Source: a virus
Length of the DNA: 35,021 nucleotides
Virus record (IMG/VR): IMGVR_UViG_3300027974_000085
Coordinates: 1-35,021 of that record
Strand: one strand, 5' to 3'
Shown in pieces: positions 1 through 35,021 of the stretch. The notes beneath the pieces were generated by a model. It was not told the origin of the DNA. It was given only the letters and a program-made list of their open reading frames with translations, and made no database searches. Position 1 is the first letter of the stretch. The number at the start of each line of letters is the position of its first letter. Position numbers and translations under genes: made by a program.

Positions 1-117
1 AAAGCTCACGTTCATGTTTGCGTTCTTACATAGCGTTTGAAGCTGTAAGCATGATTGAGCGTAAAAACCAAAACATTGACCGCCGTACATCGGTGTTGCT
101 ACAAATAAGTGTTTCAT
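1..117 (-). CDS. Glycosyltransferase, N-terminal fragment (cut by window edge)
   Basis: This is the first 39 codons of the same glycosyltransferase found whole at 34243-34980; the DNA is identical to 34864-34980. The fragment is cut only because the window starts inside the gene. In this copy the ATG directly follows the TAA stop of the PAPS-reductase-like gene, and the GGGGAT that ends that gene can serve as the ribosome binding site. In a circular genome there would be one glycosyltransferase gene, not two. Confidence 0.85.
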   Translation of the reverse strand, partial: MKHLFVATPMYGGQCFGFYAQSCLQLQTLCKNANMNVSF

Positions 118-126
118 TTAATCCCC
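1..126. repeat. Direct repeat with 34864-34989 (circular overlap)
   Basis: Bases 1-126 match 34864-34989 with no difference; position 127 (g) and 34990 (t) then diverge. A 126-base overlap is typical of a k-mer assembly overlap on a circular or circularly permuted genome, so it need not be a physical terminal repeat. Unlike a plain circular overlap, the far copy is followed by 32 further bases that do not match position 127 onward. Confidence 0.9.
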
Positions 127-903
127 GCAAAAACAATCAATTGATTCAAAGTTAAACATATCTGATTGAGAATTGGCATATTTTCCCATTGCAGAATATG
201 AAGGTCTGTCACTTCTCCATGTTGCACCTATCATTAACTCCATTTCTGCCCACCAAACAGCACGCTCTGGCTTGTCAGAAATAAGGCTAATAATTTGAGA
301 TTGACCTTTAAGGAAGCACAAATCACAGTTCCCTAATGGCGTTACACCGTTATTAAAAGGTATTCCAAGATTAAAACTATGGCTGTTCCAAAACTCTTGA
401 ACATCTTTTTGTGTTACTCCAGCACGAACTAACGGAATAAATTTATCCGGCATCTTTGCTGCTCTACGTTGTTCGTCAGCTCTAATGCCTACCGCAGTTT
501 GATATTCTTTAACTCCAATAGATTTTAAAAACCTATCAATAGTTAATATTTTTAATTCACTTGTGCAAAATCTAGCTACGGGATTAGGCAAATAATTTCT
601 TTTTGTAATAAGTTCTTTAAAAGGTTCGCCATTTCTAGATGCCGTATCAAAATTAACTTTTACAAACTTAGGTTCATTTGCCGAATACTCTAGCCAATGA
701 ATATCAACATTCCAATTTGTTTCGCAGTCACGCACAAACTTTAATGTTGCTTCATCTTCTTTCCCCGTATTAGCAAAGCAAACAATCGCATCGTCTGGCA
801 AACCATTGTTAGATTGCAATACCCTCCAAAGCATATAAGCAGACGTTCTGCCGCCAGAAAACGATATGCAGGTTGGTTCATCGATGATAAAAGGGTCTCT
901 CAT
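118..903 (-). CDS. PAPS-reductase-like PP-loop protein (optional gene cassette)
   Basis: A 261-residue member of the phosphoadenosine-phosphosulfate reductase family, an ATP-pyrophosphatase (PP-loop) fold. Seen: SFSGGRTSAYML at residues 14-25 (variant SGGxxS loop), FANTGKEDEATL near 43-54, a NCDLCFLKG cysteine pair near residue 196, and a C-terminal CFCGD, a cysteine pattern that could hold an Fe-S cluster. No other sulfate-assimilation gene is present, so cysteine synthesis is not implied; phage members could equally activate a nucleic-acid base or tRNA, and the substrate is unknown. The ATG at 903 is chosen because AAGGA lies 5-6 bases upstream; a longer TTG-start form to 942 has no such site. 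The gene is last before the glycosyltransferase, its TAA abutting that ATG. The window's far end shows the same locus without it. Confidence 0.85.
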   Translation of the reverse strand: MRDPFIIDEPTCISFSGGRTSAYMLWRVLQSNNGLPDDAIVCFANTGKEDEATLKFVRDCETNWNVDIHWLEYSANEPKFVKVNFDTASRNGEPFKELITKRNYLPNPVARFCTSELKILTIDRFLKSIGVKEYQTAVGIRADEQRRAAKMPDKFIPLVRAGVTQKDVQEFWNSHSFNLGIPFNNGVTPLGNCDLCFLKGQSQIISLISDKPERAVWWAEMELMIGATWRSDRPSYSAMGKYANSQSDMFNFESIDCFCGD

Positions 904-912
904 AAGTTCCTT

Positions 913-937
913 AATTAGTGGGCTGACCGAGACGTTG
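913..937. repeat. 25-bp direct repeat with 34997-35021
   Basis: The 25 bases upstream of the PAPS-reductase-like gene recur exactly as the last 25 bases of the window, where they sit directly upstream of the glycosyltransferase leader instead. Together with the 126-base repeat they mark the two edges of a replaceable segment (127-912, 786 bases, against 7 bases in the alternative version). Confidence 0.9.
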
Positions 938-959
938 CCCAAGCGTTCCTAACCTGTCC

Positions 960-1343
960 TCAGAGGGACTCGCCCTCGGTCTGGCGGGGGTCTTGTAGTT
1001 CTTCAATCAAAACCCTGATAAGACCACCCTTGATTGGCTCTCCGCGAATCATCTCAATGTGGTCTACCTGAAAATCATCATCGAAAACACCAGCATCTTG
1101 TAAGCTGTCGAGGACGGCTTTAATCCTGTTGTCGATGTCAATTTTCCTTTTATCTCTAGGACGCAAAATCATTGTTATTTTCAATTTCTTGTCCTCAAAC
1201 TTAGGAATGTTTTTCTCAATAATGTAATTCTGCACGTCTGTTTTGAATTGCCGTCCATTCTTTGAGAGAACGGTTCTCCCTCGAAAGTTCCTCCAATAAG
1301 TATTCATTGAAGGAGGGAACGGCAACTCTAGCCAGACGTGCAT
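960..1343 (-). CDS. rusA: RusA-family Holliday junction resolvase
   Basis: A 127-residue endonuclease that cuts Holliday junctions, resolving recombination or replication intermediates before packaging. Seen: the N-terminal LPFPPSMNTYWR typical of RusA, and the motif DIDNRIKAVLDSLQDAGVFDDD (split here as DIDNRIKAV at 69-77 and AGVFDDD at 84-90), giving Asp69, Asp71 and Asp90 in the positions of the family's metal-binding acids. The ATG at 1343 overlaps the preceding TAA as TAATG, so the gene is translationally coupled to its neighbour; an upstream in-frame TTG (1349) is less likely. It closes the exonuclease/annealing-protein/resolvase recombination module. Confidence 0.92.
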   Translation of the reverse strand: MHVWLELPFPPSMNTYWRNFRGRTVLSKNGRQFKTDVQNYIIEKNIPKFEDKKLKITMILRPRDKRKIDIDNRIKAVLDSLQDAGVFDDDFQVDHIEMIRGEPIKGGLIRVLIEELQDPRQTEGESL

Positions 1344-1685: not shown

Positions 1686-2483
1686 TTATTCAAGTGGGTC
1701 TTCCAAGTCTGCAAATGGGTCTACGCCCTGTTTAGCTGCGATAAATTTAGTCTTGGTAACAGCATCCATGCGCTTAATTGCGTCAGCGTTCCCCGCCTCC
1801 CAAGTTTTTCGCTTTTCTAGCTTTTGCTCGTCTGTCAGCTTTGGGCTATCTTCGATATTGTTAAGCATGGCAACGTACTCCTTGATGTATTCCTGCCAGT
1901 CTGAGCAGTTCAAATACACTTTGCCGTCTGGTAACAGTAACTGGTACTCCGTTACCTGTTCCTCAATAACAATTTCCGCTTCGCCCATGTCCTTGACAGT
2001 CGGGCTAGGCGTCTTGAACGTCTCAACTTCTTCTGGCGTGTAAACTCCCACGACGCAAGACGGATAGACTGTTCTAACGCCTTCTGAGACGCATCTGGCC
2101 CTAAGCATTGCTCTGGCATAGTTGCGCCAGTTGTCTTTGCCGGTAAGCCCGATTTTCTTAGCCATCTCAAATGTCCATACGACAGTAACAGAGCCGCCGT
2201 TAGGGTGAGAAAAAGTCCCAGCCACTCTTTCATCGGTGTATTCCTCCCATTTGACTGAGCCACCGGCTTGCTGAAAGCGACCTAACATTGCGTCAGCCTT
2301 CAAAGCAGGTCGGCCCTGTATGACATGAAAATCCCGCATAGCGATAGCAGGGTGCATATTCTCTGCTTGGCAGAGCAGCATGATTGCCATTGCTTCCTCA
2401 GTTGATTTAAAGCCGAACATCTTGCTTTTAGATGCAACTTCAGCCATCTCGCGTATTTCATTAATCGGCACTAGGGCAGTCAT
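1686..2483 (-). CDS. recT: RecT-family single-strand annealing protein
   Basis: A 265-residue protein of the RecT/RedB-like annealing family, which pairs complementary single strands made by the partner exonuclease. Seen: the N-terminal EEAMAIMLLCQAENMHPAIA, then DFHVIQGRPALKADAMLGRF (residues ~51-70), a strongly conserved RecT region, and NWRNYARAMLRARCVSEGVR before a charged, coiled C-terminal third. GAGGGA precedes the ATG at 2483, which overlaps the upstream stop as ATGA. Its place two genes after a YqaJ-type exonuclease supports a Red-like recombination pair. Confidence 0.88.
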   Translation of the reverse strand: MTALVPINEIREMAEVASKSKMFGFKSTEEAMAIMLLCQAENMHPAIAMRDFHVIQGRPALKADAMLGRFQQAGGSVKWEEYTDERVAGTFSHPNGGSVTVVWTFEMAKKIGLTGKDNWRNYARAMLRARCVSEGVRTVYPSCVVGVYTPEEVETFKTPSPTVKDMGEAEIVIEEQVTEYQLLLPDGKVYLNCSDWQEYIKEYVAMLNNIEDSPKLTDEQKLEKRKTWEAGNADAIKRMDAVTKTKFIAAKQGVDPFADLEDPLE

Positions 2484-2687: not shown

Positions 2688-3587
2688 TTATTTAAGTAAG
2701 AAGCGGCGAGAACCTGCCGTTTTCGTGACAAACTTTTCATAGGTTTCAGGCATCGTTGATTGAAATAACTTAGCGTCAAATCTATCACTTGCTTTGCTGT
2801 TTTTCCAAGTCGCTAGAATCTTTCCGTCAAACGTCAGCAATTCAGAACAGAATCCCATATGAGACTGGATAGCAGTAGCCAGACGGTCTTCTTGCTCTTC
2901 TAGCATCTTCCTTTGTTCCTTAATATGTTTCAGAGCTTCGGCTGCTTTCTCAATCTGCGAGATAGCCACTACAGACGTGCCGTTGTCTTGGGCATAGATG
3001 AGCTTCGTCTGGTCTGTATCTTCGGGTTCTAGGGGTGTTTTAGTCGCTACTGCACCCCAAAACTTAGCCATATCTTTGATTAGTTCCTCTTTTTGGCCTT
3101 CAGTAATCGTAAAATCAAAGGTTTCAAAGTATTGACCACCAAAAAGAACAGCCAAGACAATGCGGTCAACGCCATGACAAGCCGCCTCATGGACAAGTTG
3201 AGCCATATCTGCCGGAGGAATAATGTTCGATTCAGAATCAAACTTATTACGTACCGCAGCGTTATAGTTCTTGGCCTCCACCAGCGTTTGACCATCCGCA
3301 GAGATGAAATCGAAATGGCTACGCAGCCACCCCTCTTTCGGGTGTGTAATCGCATAATCAGCGTCCTTCAATTCAATGCCGAGCTTGTCTTGGGCTAGTC
3401 TGCCGATAACTGGCTGCATAACGTGACCCATCTGGACAGCTTCCACTTGGCTAAGGTCGGGCCGTTCTTTCAAGCCTAGCTTTTCAAGCACAGCTTCATT
3501 GCCTTTGCCGTTGGCTGCTTTGCGCGAGTCACCAGACCACCATGCAGAATTGCGTATTTCGGGGAGAAAATCGTTTTGGTCGTTCAT
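2688..3587 (-). CDS. YqaJ-type exonuclease (viral recombinase)
   Basis: A 299-residue nuclease of the YqaJ/lambda-exonuclease (PD-(D/E)XK) family, expected to resect double-stranded ends to give single strands for the annealing protein. Seen: NSAWWSGDSRKAANGKGNEA near the N-terminus, VEAVQMGHVMQPVIG (49-63), then the catalytic core HFDFISADGQTLVEAKNY (91-108) with Asp93, Glu104 and Lys106. The C-terminal half has a charged helical stretch (IKEQRKMLEEQEDRLATAI). GAGGAC lies 7 bases before the ATG, which overlaps the preceding stop as ATGA. Confidence 0.88.
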   Translation of the reverse strand: MNDQNDFLPEIRNSAWWSGDSRKAANGKGNEAVLEKLGLKERPDLSQVEAVQMGHVMQPVIGRLAQDKLGIELKDADYAITHPKEGWLRSHFDFISADGQTLVEAKNYNAAVRNKFDSESNIIPPADMAQLVHEAACHGVDRIVLAVLFGGQYFETFDFTITEGQKEELIKDMAKFWGAVATKTPLEPEDTDQTKLIYAQDNGTSVVAISQIEKAAEALKHIKEQRKMLEEQEDRLATAIQSHMGFCSELLTFDGKILATWKNSKASDRFDAKLFQSTMPETYEKFVTKTAGSRRFLLK

Positions 3588-33893: not shown

Positions 33894-34246
33894 TAACCTA
33901 TATCGGCTACTAGATACCATTCAGTAATATAGTCTTTGAATTCAATTAACCCTTTGCCGGATTGGACGTAATTGCCGTCCGGCGTAATGCGCCAAAAGCT
34001 GCCTACGCGCATCCCGTTCTCAGTATCCCCGTTGATGACCAAGACAGTAGCCCTAGGAAGCCTTGAGAGGGCTTTTAAGAGGATTTCTTGGCCCTTGCTT
34101 ATCTTTTCCCCGTCTCGCTTCCATTCGCCGAATAGGAAGTGTCCTTTGCGTTCTAGGACCATATCTAGATTTGACGGCACTACTTTGCCGAGTAAGCCTG
34201 ACAGCTCCCCAAAATCAACATGGGGAGCGTATTTATCGCGCATCAT
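33893..34246 (-). CDS. PD-(D/E)XK-like nuclease candidate
   Basis: A 117-residue protein. PSNLDMVLERKGHFLFGEWK places Asp28, Glu32, Glu41 and Lys43 in a D...ExK arrangement, followed by ISKGQEILLKAL (a Gln often found after this core in resolvase-like nucleases). It is probably a small DNA nuclease of the recombination/processing set; exact activity unknown. Two ATGs (34246, 34243) overlap the glycosyltransferase stop, so it is translationally coupled. It is the last gene of the leftward operon. Confidence 0.65.
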   Translation of the reverse strand: MMRDKYAPHVDFGELSGLLGKVVPSNLDMVLERKGHFLFGEWKRDGEKISKGQEILLKALSRLPRATVLVINGDTENGMRVGSFWRITPDGNYVQSGKGLIEFKDYITEWYLVADIG

Positions 34247-34980
34247 GGCGTTTGCAGTAATTGGCCTTCAAATGCGTATGTGCCAACGTGTCCTAAGTTA
34301 ACCCAAGGAGCAGCCCATACTTTTAAACCATTATCACGGGCTTTTTTACAAAAATCGTAATCTTCAGACAATAACAATTTTGATTCTTTTTCAATTTGGG
34401 TAGCAAAAAATTCGTGAATTGTTTCGCCGTTTTGGCTATTTCTCATGTCTAGCACGTTATTTAAGTACATCGGCACTTTTCCAATCAAACTCTCAAATAC
34501 CTCACGCTTAATCAGCATGAATCCTGTGCCGCCGTTCCATATCTCAACGGGCTTATTAATTGGCACGGTCACTTGACTTTGATAATCAATCAGATTGACC
34601 ACAAATGCGCCTGTATGATGTTTTAGCTGGTCATCAGGCACACCGGCTTCAATAGCATTGCGAACAGTCTGCCAATTAATTTCTTTTTTCGGGTAAATGC
34701 CGCAAATGATGTCTTTGTCAGCTTCCAGCATAGGAAATATGTCGTTAGGATTGAAGCGAATATCCGCATCAATAAACATCATATGAGTAGCATCAGACTT
34801 TAAAAAATAATGTACTAATAAATTCCTAGCTCTTTGGATTAATGATTCATTAAAAAGATAAGAAAAGCTCACGTTCATGTTTGCGTTCTTACATAGCGTT
34901 TGAAGCTGTAAGCATGATTGAGCGTAAAAACCAAAACATTGACCGCCGTACATCGGTGTTGCTACAAATAAGTGTTTCAT
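34243..34980 (-). CDS. Glycosyltransferase (GT-A fold, DxD)
   Basis: A 245-residue cytoplasmic GT-A enzyme. Seen: ATPMYGGQCFGFYAQSCLQL at the N-terminus, FNESLIQRARNLLVHYFL, the metal/nucleotide-sugar motif FIDADIRFNP with Asp71-Ala-Asp73, YPKKEINW, then NGGTGFMLIKREVFE and a LLSEDYDFCKKARDNG C-terminal acid cluster. It probably adds sugar to a phage or host-surface target. AAGGGGATTAA precedes the ATG. Its first 39 codons are repeated at the window start. Confidence 0.88.
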   Translation of the reverse strand: MKHLFVATPMYGGQCFGFYAQSCLQLQTLCKNANMNVSFSYLFNESLIQRARNLLVHYFLKSDATHMMFIDADIRFNPNDIFPMLEADKDIICGIYPKKEINWQTVRNAIEAGVPDDQLKHHTGAFVVNLIDYQSQVTVPINKPVEIWNGGTGFMLIKREVFESLIGKVPMYLNNVLDMRNSQNGETIHEFFATQIEKESKLLLSEDYDFCKKARDNGLKVWAAPWVNLGHVGTYAFEGQLLQTP

Positions 34981-34989
34981 TTAATCCCC
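34864..34989. repeat. Direct repeat with 1-126
   Basis: Far copy of the 126-base repeat, covering the start of the glycosyltransferase gene and its ribosome site. Here it is followed by TTAGTTA and then the 25-base repeat (34997-35021), not by the PAPS-reductase-like gene. Confidence 0.9.
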
Positions 34990-34996
34990 TTAGTTA

Positions 34997-35021
34997 AATT
35001 AGTGGGCTGACCGAGACGTTG
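34997..35021. repeat. Direct repeat with 913-937
   Basis: The last 25 bases of the window equal 913-937. Their position directly upstream of the glycosyltransferase leader shows a junction lacking the 786-base segment present in the other copy. Confidence 0.9.

What the first reader, a model, noticed from the sequence alone, without database searches (positions are those of the whole stretch)
118..937. Contig ends record presence and absence of a PAPS-reductase-like gene
Seen directly: the sequence entering the glycosyltransferase exists in two forms. At the window start the 126-base shared stretch continues into the PAPS-reductase-like gene; at the window end the same stretch is followed by only 7 unique bases and then the 25 bases that normally lie upstream of that gene. 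The replaced segment is 786 bases, exactly the gene's length (118-903), and the gene's last codons (GGG GAT TAA) rebuild the neighbour's ribosome site. This points to a clean gene cassette gained or lost in a mixed phage population (about 34.86 kb with, 34.08 kb without). It could be a cargo gene whose benefit depends on conditions.
Basis: partly seen in the sequence, partly recalled or inferred. Interest (0 to 1): 0.75.

Follow-up and report, generated by a model that had tools for sequence, protein, structure and literature searches.

The report
Optional phage gene beside structured RNA
A circular aquatic phage genome was assembled across a spot where one gene is present in some copies and absent in others; relatives show that this spot repeatedly gains and loses genes and lies right next to a folded RNA element that no RNA library describes.

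Summary
Bases 1-126 recur at 34864-34989; there the sequence branches: 786 bases (127-912, holding the PAPS-reductase-like gene) at the start, 7 bases at the end, both followed by the same 25 bases (913-937). Relatives show that the empty end is real. Among 94 distinct rusA-GT stretches, 58 have no gene between rusA and the glycosyltransferase; the others carry a PP-loop gene, HNH gene, C5-methyltransferase or other insert. The 7 'unique' bases are the ordinary linker of empty relatives, so the empty allele is ancestral-type and the gene a gain; a second lineage (L096/L099 versus L097) repeats it. 'Gain or loss in a mixed population' is well supported. Allele frequency, benefit and 'PAPS reductase' are not: the protein lacks the CysH ECGxH motif and matches SspD best among defence models. 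Unexpectedly, the 25 shared bases are the 3' part of a strongly covarying pseudoknotted RNA at the end of rusA (window 919-990, minus strand): 21 of 22 pairs have compensatory changes, with no Rfam match. In 71 of 72 viral contigs carrying its core pattern it follows rusA; the other looks like a chance match. The cassette is a known kind; the RNA is the new part.

The parts
1..126 (.). stretch shared by both alleles (first 117 bases of the glycosyltransferase gene plus GGGGATTAA), copy at window start
   Evidence: identical to 34864-34989
34864..34989 (.). same shared stretch, copy at window end
127..912 (.). segment present only in the filled allele (786 bases)
118..903 (-). PP-loop gene, 261 aa, annotated kin 'PAPS reductase'; ends CGD-stop = GGGGAT TAA, the Shine-Dalgarno of the next gene
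34990..34996 (.). 7 bases specific to the empty allele (TAACTAA on the coding strand); matches the natural linker of empty relatives (CAACTAA, CAACAAG)
913..937 (-). 25 bases shared by both alleles; holds strands P4b, PKb and P3b of the structured RNA
34997..35021 (-). same 25 bases at window end; scored by the RNA model as a truncated copy
919..990 (-). structured RNA overlapping the rusA 3' end: P0 986-983/974-971, P2 969-966/959-956, P4 946-944/934-932, P3 941-937/923-919, pseudoknot 980-975/931-926; rusA stop codon (962-960) in the P2 loop
960..1349 (-). rusA, Holliday-junction resolvase, left border of the slot
34243..34980 (-). glycosyltransferase-like gene, right border of the slot (in the circle: 34243-34863 + 1-117)
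1686..2483 (-). RecT-like annealase candidate (Pfam score below gathering), same early operon
2688..3587 (-). YqaJ-like exonuclease candidate (Pfam score below gathering), same early operon

Best explanation
The window is a circular phage genome (34,863 bp in its filled form). The assembler closed the circle at a population branch and kept a 32-base stub of the second branch at the end. The branch is a variable gene slot between rusA and a glycosyltransferase gene. One allele carries a PP-loop gene; the other carries the short ancestral-type linker. SHOWN: both allele ends, the slot's variability in relatives, at least two separate gains of the PP-loop gene, and borders at the 3' edge of a conserved structured RNA (left) and at GGGGATTAA before the next ATG (right). 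INFERRED: the gene entered by recombination with a related phage, helped by the phage's own annealase, exonuclease and resolvase. Because its near-invariant last codons (GGR GAY stop) double as a Shine-Dalgarno, it slots in front of another gene without breaking that gene's translation. INFERRED: the protein is an ATP-pyrophosphatase with probable cysteine-bound iron-sulfur or sulfur chemistry, closer to SspD-type than to proven CysH enzymes; its benefit is unknown.
For: Exact repeat structure. Slot content in 94 distinct rusA-GT stretches: 58 empty, 5 C5-MTase, 4 HNH, 3 PP-loop, 6 short, 18 other. The empty linkers of relatives nearly match the window's empty end; L179's linker differs by one base between RNA and ATG. 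At least 8 state changes on the RusA tree, PP-loop gain at least twice. L097 (empty) and L096 (filled) have near-identical left flanks. L161 confirms the filled junction. L160, a contig from another sample 99.8% identical, stops exactly at base 913, the branch point. Base composition of the gene (GC 0.37, third-position GC 0.27) differs from rusA (0.43, 0.51). Of 75 relatives of the PP-loop gene with a readable 3' end, 61 have GGA or GGG as the Gly codon before the final Asp codon and stop, and 64 have a start codon within about 15 bases of the stop.
Against: No reads or coverage are available, so coexistence in one sample rests on the contig's own end. Only 32 bases of the empty branch are seen; it could belong to a sister strain that differs elsewhere. 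The exact empty junction is not found in other viral contigs. RecT and YqaJ assignments are below Pfam's gathering scores.
Confidence: 0.85

Rival explanations
1. The window end is an assembly or chimera error and there is no empty allele.
For: The end is short (32 bases past the branch) and no other viral contig holds it exactly.
Against: Its 7 unique bases reproduce the linker of natural empty relatives, which an error could not supply; L160 breaks at the same base in another sample.
Confidence: 0.06
2. The two ends come from two distinct co-occurring phage strains rather than from one mixed population of otherwise identical phages. (This modifies the main reading; it does not exclude it.)
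For: Relatives with almost the same flanks are common; two other contigs end on branches that differ by about 10% or by indels.
Against: The 126 shared bases are identical, while the glycosyltransferase of the nearest empty relatives is only about 83-90% identical in protein.
Confidence: 0.3
3. The gene was lost by deletion from a filled ancestor.
For: Filled and empty alleles share both borders exactly.
Against: A deletion would have to create TAACTAA, which the filled allele lacks at this place and empty relatives have; the close rusA clade is mostly empty or carries other inserts.
Confidence: 0.07
4. The slot is a dedicated insertion site: the structured RNA (or its DNA) or HNH homing enzymes direct cassette insertion there.
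For: HNH genes occupy the slot in four distinct stretches; many inserts begin right after the RNA; in MTase loci the RNA element lies at the 3' end of the inserted gene.
Against: No recombinase or attachment site was found; the borders vary (MTase inserts lie upstream of the RNA); GU/AC counts point to an RNA, not a DNA, function.
Confidence: 0.12

Closest known systems
Phage morons / accessory gene cassettes in modular (mosaic) phage genomes
   Same: single gene with its own start signals inserted between conserved genes, present or absent among close relatives
   Different: no own promoter or terminator was demonstrated; the gene's end supplies the next gene's ribosome site; the left border is a structured RNA
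Phage 'PAPS reductase' / cysH auxiliary metabolic genes (PHROG phrog_424)
   Same: the protein is a clear member of phrog_424 (5e-49) and of the PP-loop superfamily
   Different: lacks the catalytic ECGxH motif; PF01507 is below its gathering score, so sulfate-assimilation activity is unsupported
SspD / DndC ATP pyrophosphatases of DNA phosphorothioation (PMC8092258, PMC10853773)
   Same: SspD is the PADLOC model that all 27 relatives match; PP-loop plus conserved cysteines
   Different: none of the ten other window proteins scanned matches a PADLOC model, so no Ssp partner was seen; role here unknown
H-type pseudoknot cis-RNAs (such as the preQ1-II and SAM-II riboswitches, from general knowledge)
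   Same: compact pseudoknot lying before a ribosome site in an mRNA
   Different: different strand order and conserved sequence as far as I recall them, no Rfam match; follows one gene (rusA) while the downstream gene varies; stop codon of rusA lies inside it

Membership tests
CysH PAPS/APS reductase | PP-loop nucleotide-binding motif SGGxxS and fold | tested here: met
   SGGRTS in 27 of 27; model resembles CysH and APS reductases, LarE and TtuA-type thiolases
CysH PAPS/APS reductase | catalytic C-terminal ECG(L/I)H motif | tested here: not met
   0 of 27 sequences; C-terminus is CFCGD
CysH PAPS/APS reductase | CC...CxxC iron-sulfur ligands (APS-type enzymes only) | tested here: not met
   0 of 27 have CC..RK; one invariant Cys (RFCT) plus NCDLC and CFC instead
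SspD (DNA phosphorothioation) | profile match | tested here: met
   PADLOC SspD 1.6e-14; all 27 relatives match
SspD (DNA phosphorothioation) | SspA/B/C partners nearby | tested here: inconclusive
   none among the ten window proteins scanned; not all window proteins were scanned and the host could supply them
Phage accessory gene cassette (moron-like) | presence/absence between conserved flanks in close relatives | tested here: met
Phage accessory gene cassette (moron-like) | own promoter and terminator | not tested
   not scanned
Any Rfam 15 family (for the rusA-end RNA) | match to a covariance model | tested here: not met
   no gathering-level match in the window or five diverse relatives; nothing over 913-982 even at E up to 10, the few chance hits lie at 983 and beyond
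Structured RNA (for the rusA-end element) | compensatory base changes above shuffled and slid controls | tested here: met
   21 of 22 pairs, 223 double-change cells against 49.5 shuffled and at most 40 slid

The most novel reading that the evidence does not exclude
The rusA 3' end of a large group of aquatic phages carries an undescribed class of multi-pseudoknot RNA, with the rusA stop codon inside it, that acts in cis on the mRNA (termination, stability or downstream translation); accessory genes come and go at its edge.
Probability: 0.8. Interest if true: 0.65.

Novelty: new variant of a known kind. Interest (0 to 1): 0.52.

Why it matters
For the cassette: it is a snapshot of one gene being gained at a slot that keeps changing, and it warns that phage 'PAPS reductase' genes, widely counted as sulfur-cycling genes, may not be sulfate-assimilation enzymes. 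For the RNA: a compact, strongly covarying pseudoknotted RNA absent from Rfam and tied to a recombination gene would be a new orphan RNA class with a clear test case; it is short enough for direct biochemical probing.

Tried and rejected
Exact search for the empty junction in viral contigs found none. No convincing prophage copy of the RNA in bacterial genomes: two pattern hits only, weak to the model (18.1 and 11.3 bits), taken as chance. Nested minimum-energy folding of the RNA is not unusual (z 1.25); it cannot represent the pseudoknots, so it was not counted either way. HDV, pistol and twister topologies were compared by strand order from memory and do not fit. Stop-codon readthrough or frameshifting was judged unlikely because loop lengths change by numbers not divisible by three. 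Sequence search against solved structures found no relative of the PP-loop protein. Literature search for a rusA-linked RNA found nothing. L160 and L161 lie in contigs of only 4.2 and 4.5 kb, so they do not allow whole-genome comparison.

Full report
OBSERVATION. The repeat structure is exactly as described. Bases 1-126 equal 34864-34989. At the start the sequence goes on into 127-912; at the end it goes through 7 bases into the 25 bases 913-937. One correction: the replaced segment (127-912) and the gene (118-903) have the same length but are offset by 9 bases, because the gene's last 9 bases, GGGGATTAA, are shared by both forms. The record is an IMG/VR virus contig of exactly 35,021 bases.

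WHY THE CONTIG ENDS THERE. Of ten relatives whose ends were read, four end with exact terminal overlaps of 123, 123, 102 and 22 bases, as circular genomes do, and two others (G009, G005) share 127 and 113 bases with their own start and then run onto a variant branch. In G009 that branch is a 90%-identical version of what reads as the terminase gene. So 'closing the circle and then stepping onto a population variant' is a recurrent assembly outcome. A shared length of 126 fits an assembler word of 127 (my own knowledge of common settings, not tested). The window's branch is therefore most simply a real second path, kept only as a short stub.

THE EMPTY ALLELE IS REAL SEQUENCE. On the coding strand the window's empty end reads CACTAATTTAACTAAGGGGATTAAATG. 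Natural empty relatives read CACTAATTCAACTAAAGGGGATTACATG (L168-L173) or CACTAATTCAACAAGGGGATTTAATG (L162-L164); the MTase-bearing L179 reads CACTAATTCAACTAAGGGGATTAAATG. The 7 bases that look unique are thus the ordinary linker. A deletion from the filled allele could not easily have produced them. The filled allele is confirmed by L161. L160, from a different sample and 99.8% identical, ends exactly at base 913, the same branch point.

THE SLOT. Of 94 distinct rusA-to-GT stretches in viral contigs, 58 hold no gene between the two; the rest hold a C5-cytosine methyltransferase (5), an HNH protein (4), the PP-loop gene (3), short inserts (6) or other stretches (18). On the RusA tree of close relatives the slot content needs at least 8 changes, and the PP-loop gene at least two gains. 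L096 and L099 (filled) against L097 (empty) repeat the window's case with a PP-loop protein only 56-59% identical. The early operon also encodes RecT-like and YqaJ-like proteins besides RusA (the first two below gathering scores), so homologous exchange between related phages is a plausible route, not a demonstrated one.

THE GENE. It belongs to PHROG 424 and the PP-loop superfamily; the AlphaFold model (mean pLDDT 81) resembles CysH, APS reductase and LarE most. All 27 aligned relatives have SGGRTS, RFCT, NCDLC and CFCG, and none has the CysH ECGxH motif. Every one matches PADLOC's SspD model. I read it as an ATP pyrophosphatase with likely sulfur or iron-sulfur chemistry, substrate unknown; 'PAPS reductase' should be treated as a family name only. 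Its conserved C-terminus CGD-stop is usually written GGR GAY TAA/TGA and lies within about 15 bases of the next start codon in 64 of 75 relatives, so the gene brings a ribosome site for whatever follows it.

THE RNA. The 25 shared bases are the 3' part of an element spanning 919-990 on the minus strand. Across 74 matches (66 distinct) it forms a 4-bp hairpin P0 whose loop makes a 6-bp pseudoknot with a distant strand, a hairpin P2 that is missing in a few relatives, a helix P3, and a short helix P4 interleaved with P3 and the pseudoknot, plus the nearly invariant GUUAGG; 95.4% of cells pair, 21 of 22 pairs show changes on both sides, 223 double-change cells against 49.5 in shuffles and at most 40 in slid controls. 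The pseudoknot and P4 were not part of the model that made the alignment, yet 99.5% and 88% of their cells pair. G-U cells outnumber A-C cells 67 to 18, so the coding-strand RNA is probably what folds. In 44 of 74 the stop codon of the gene it overlaps is the UAG of GUUAGG, and in 20 the UGA in the P2 loop. In 71 of 72 viral contigs with the core pattern it follows rusA; the remaining one (L291) shows neither rusA nor a model match. In MTase loci the RNA lies at the end of the methyltransferase instead, whose C-terminus then reads like RusA's. No Rfam family matches, and no paper found in the library describes it. Its function is unknown; a cis role in rusA mRNA termination, stability or downstream translation is my best guess (about 0.6), a self-cleaving or ligand-binding RNA less likely.

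VERDICT. The finding is real and its biological reading is largely right, but it is an ordinary kind of phage variability. The neighbouring RNA is the more original result.

Noticed in passing
window 919-990 (-): Strongly covarying multi-pseudoknot RNA overlapping the rusA stop codon, absent from Rfam, present after rusA in dozens of aquatic phage contigs.
   Followed up: yes
L084, L176, L177, L179-L183, between rusA and GT: A C5-cytosine methyltransferase sits between rusA and the RNA; the methyltransferase's C-terminus (PRxxEGESL) then equals RusA's, because the RNA's 5' half encodes it.
   Followed up: partly
L083, L165, L166, L178 (slot between rusA and GT): HNH-type genes occupy the same slot, raising the possibility of homing into it.
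   Followed up: partly
L269/L270 (G009 ends) and L265/L266 (G005 ends): Other circular phage contigs in IMG/VR end by closing on themselves and then running onto a variant branch; such ends could be mined systematically for population variants.
   Followed up: partly
L096 versus L099, PP-loop gene: L099 lacks 24 codons inside the PP-loop gene that L096 has, with otherwise matching flanks; deletion variant or assembly artefact.
   Followed up: no
L160 contig end = window 913: A 99.8% identical contig from another sample stops exactly at the branch point, suggesting that the slot is polymorphic there too.
   Followed up: partly
L061, L063, L065: In other phages the PP-loop gene lies directly upstream of a RusA homologue instead of downstream.
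   Followed up: no
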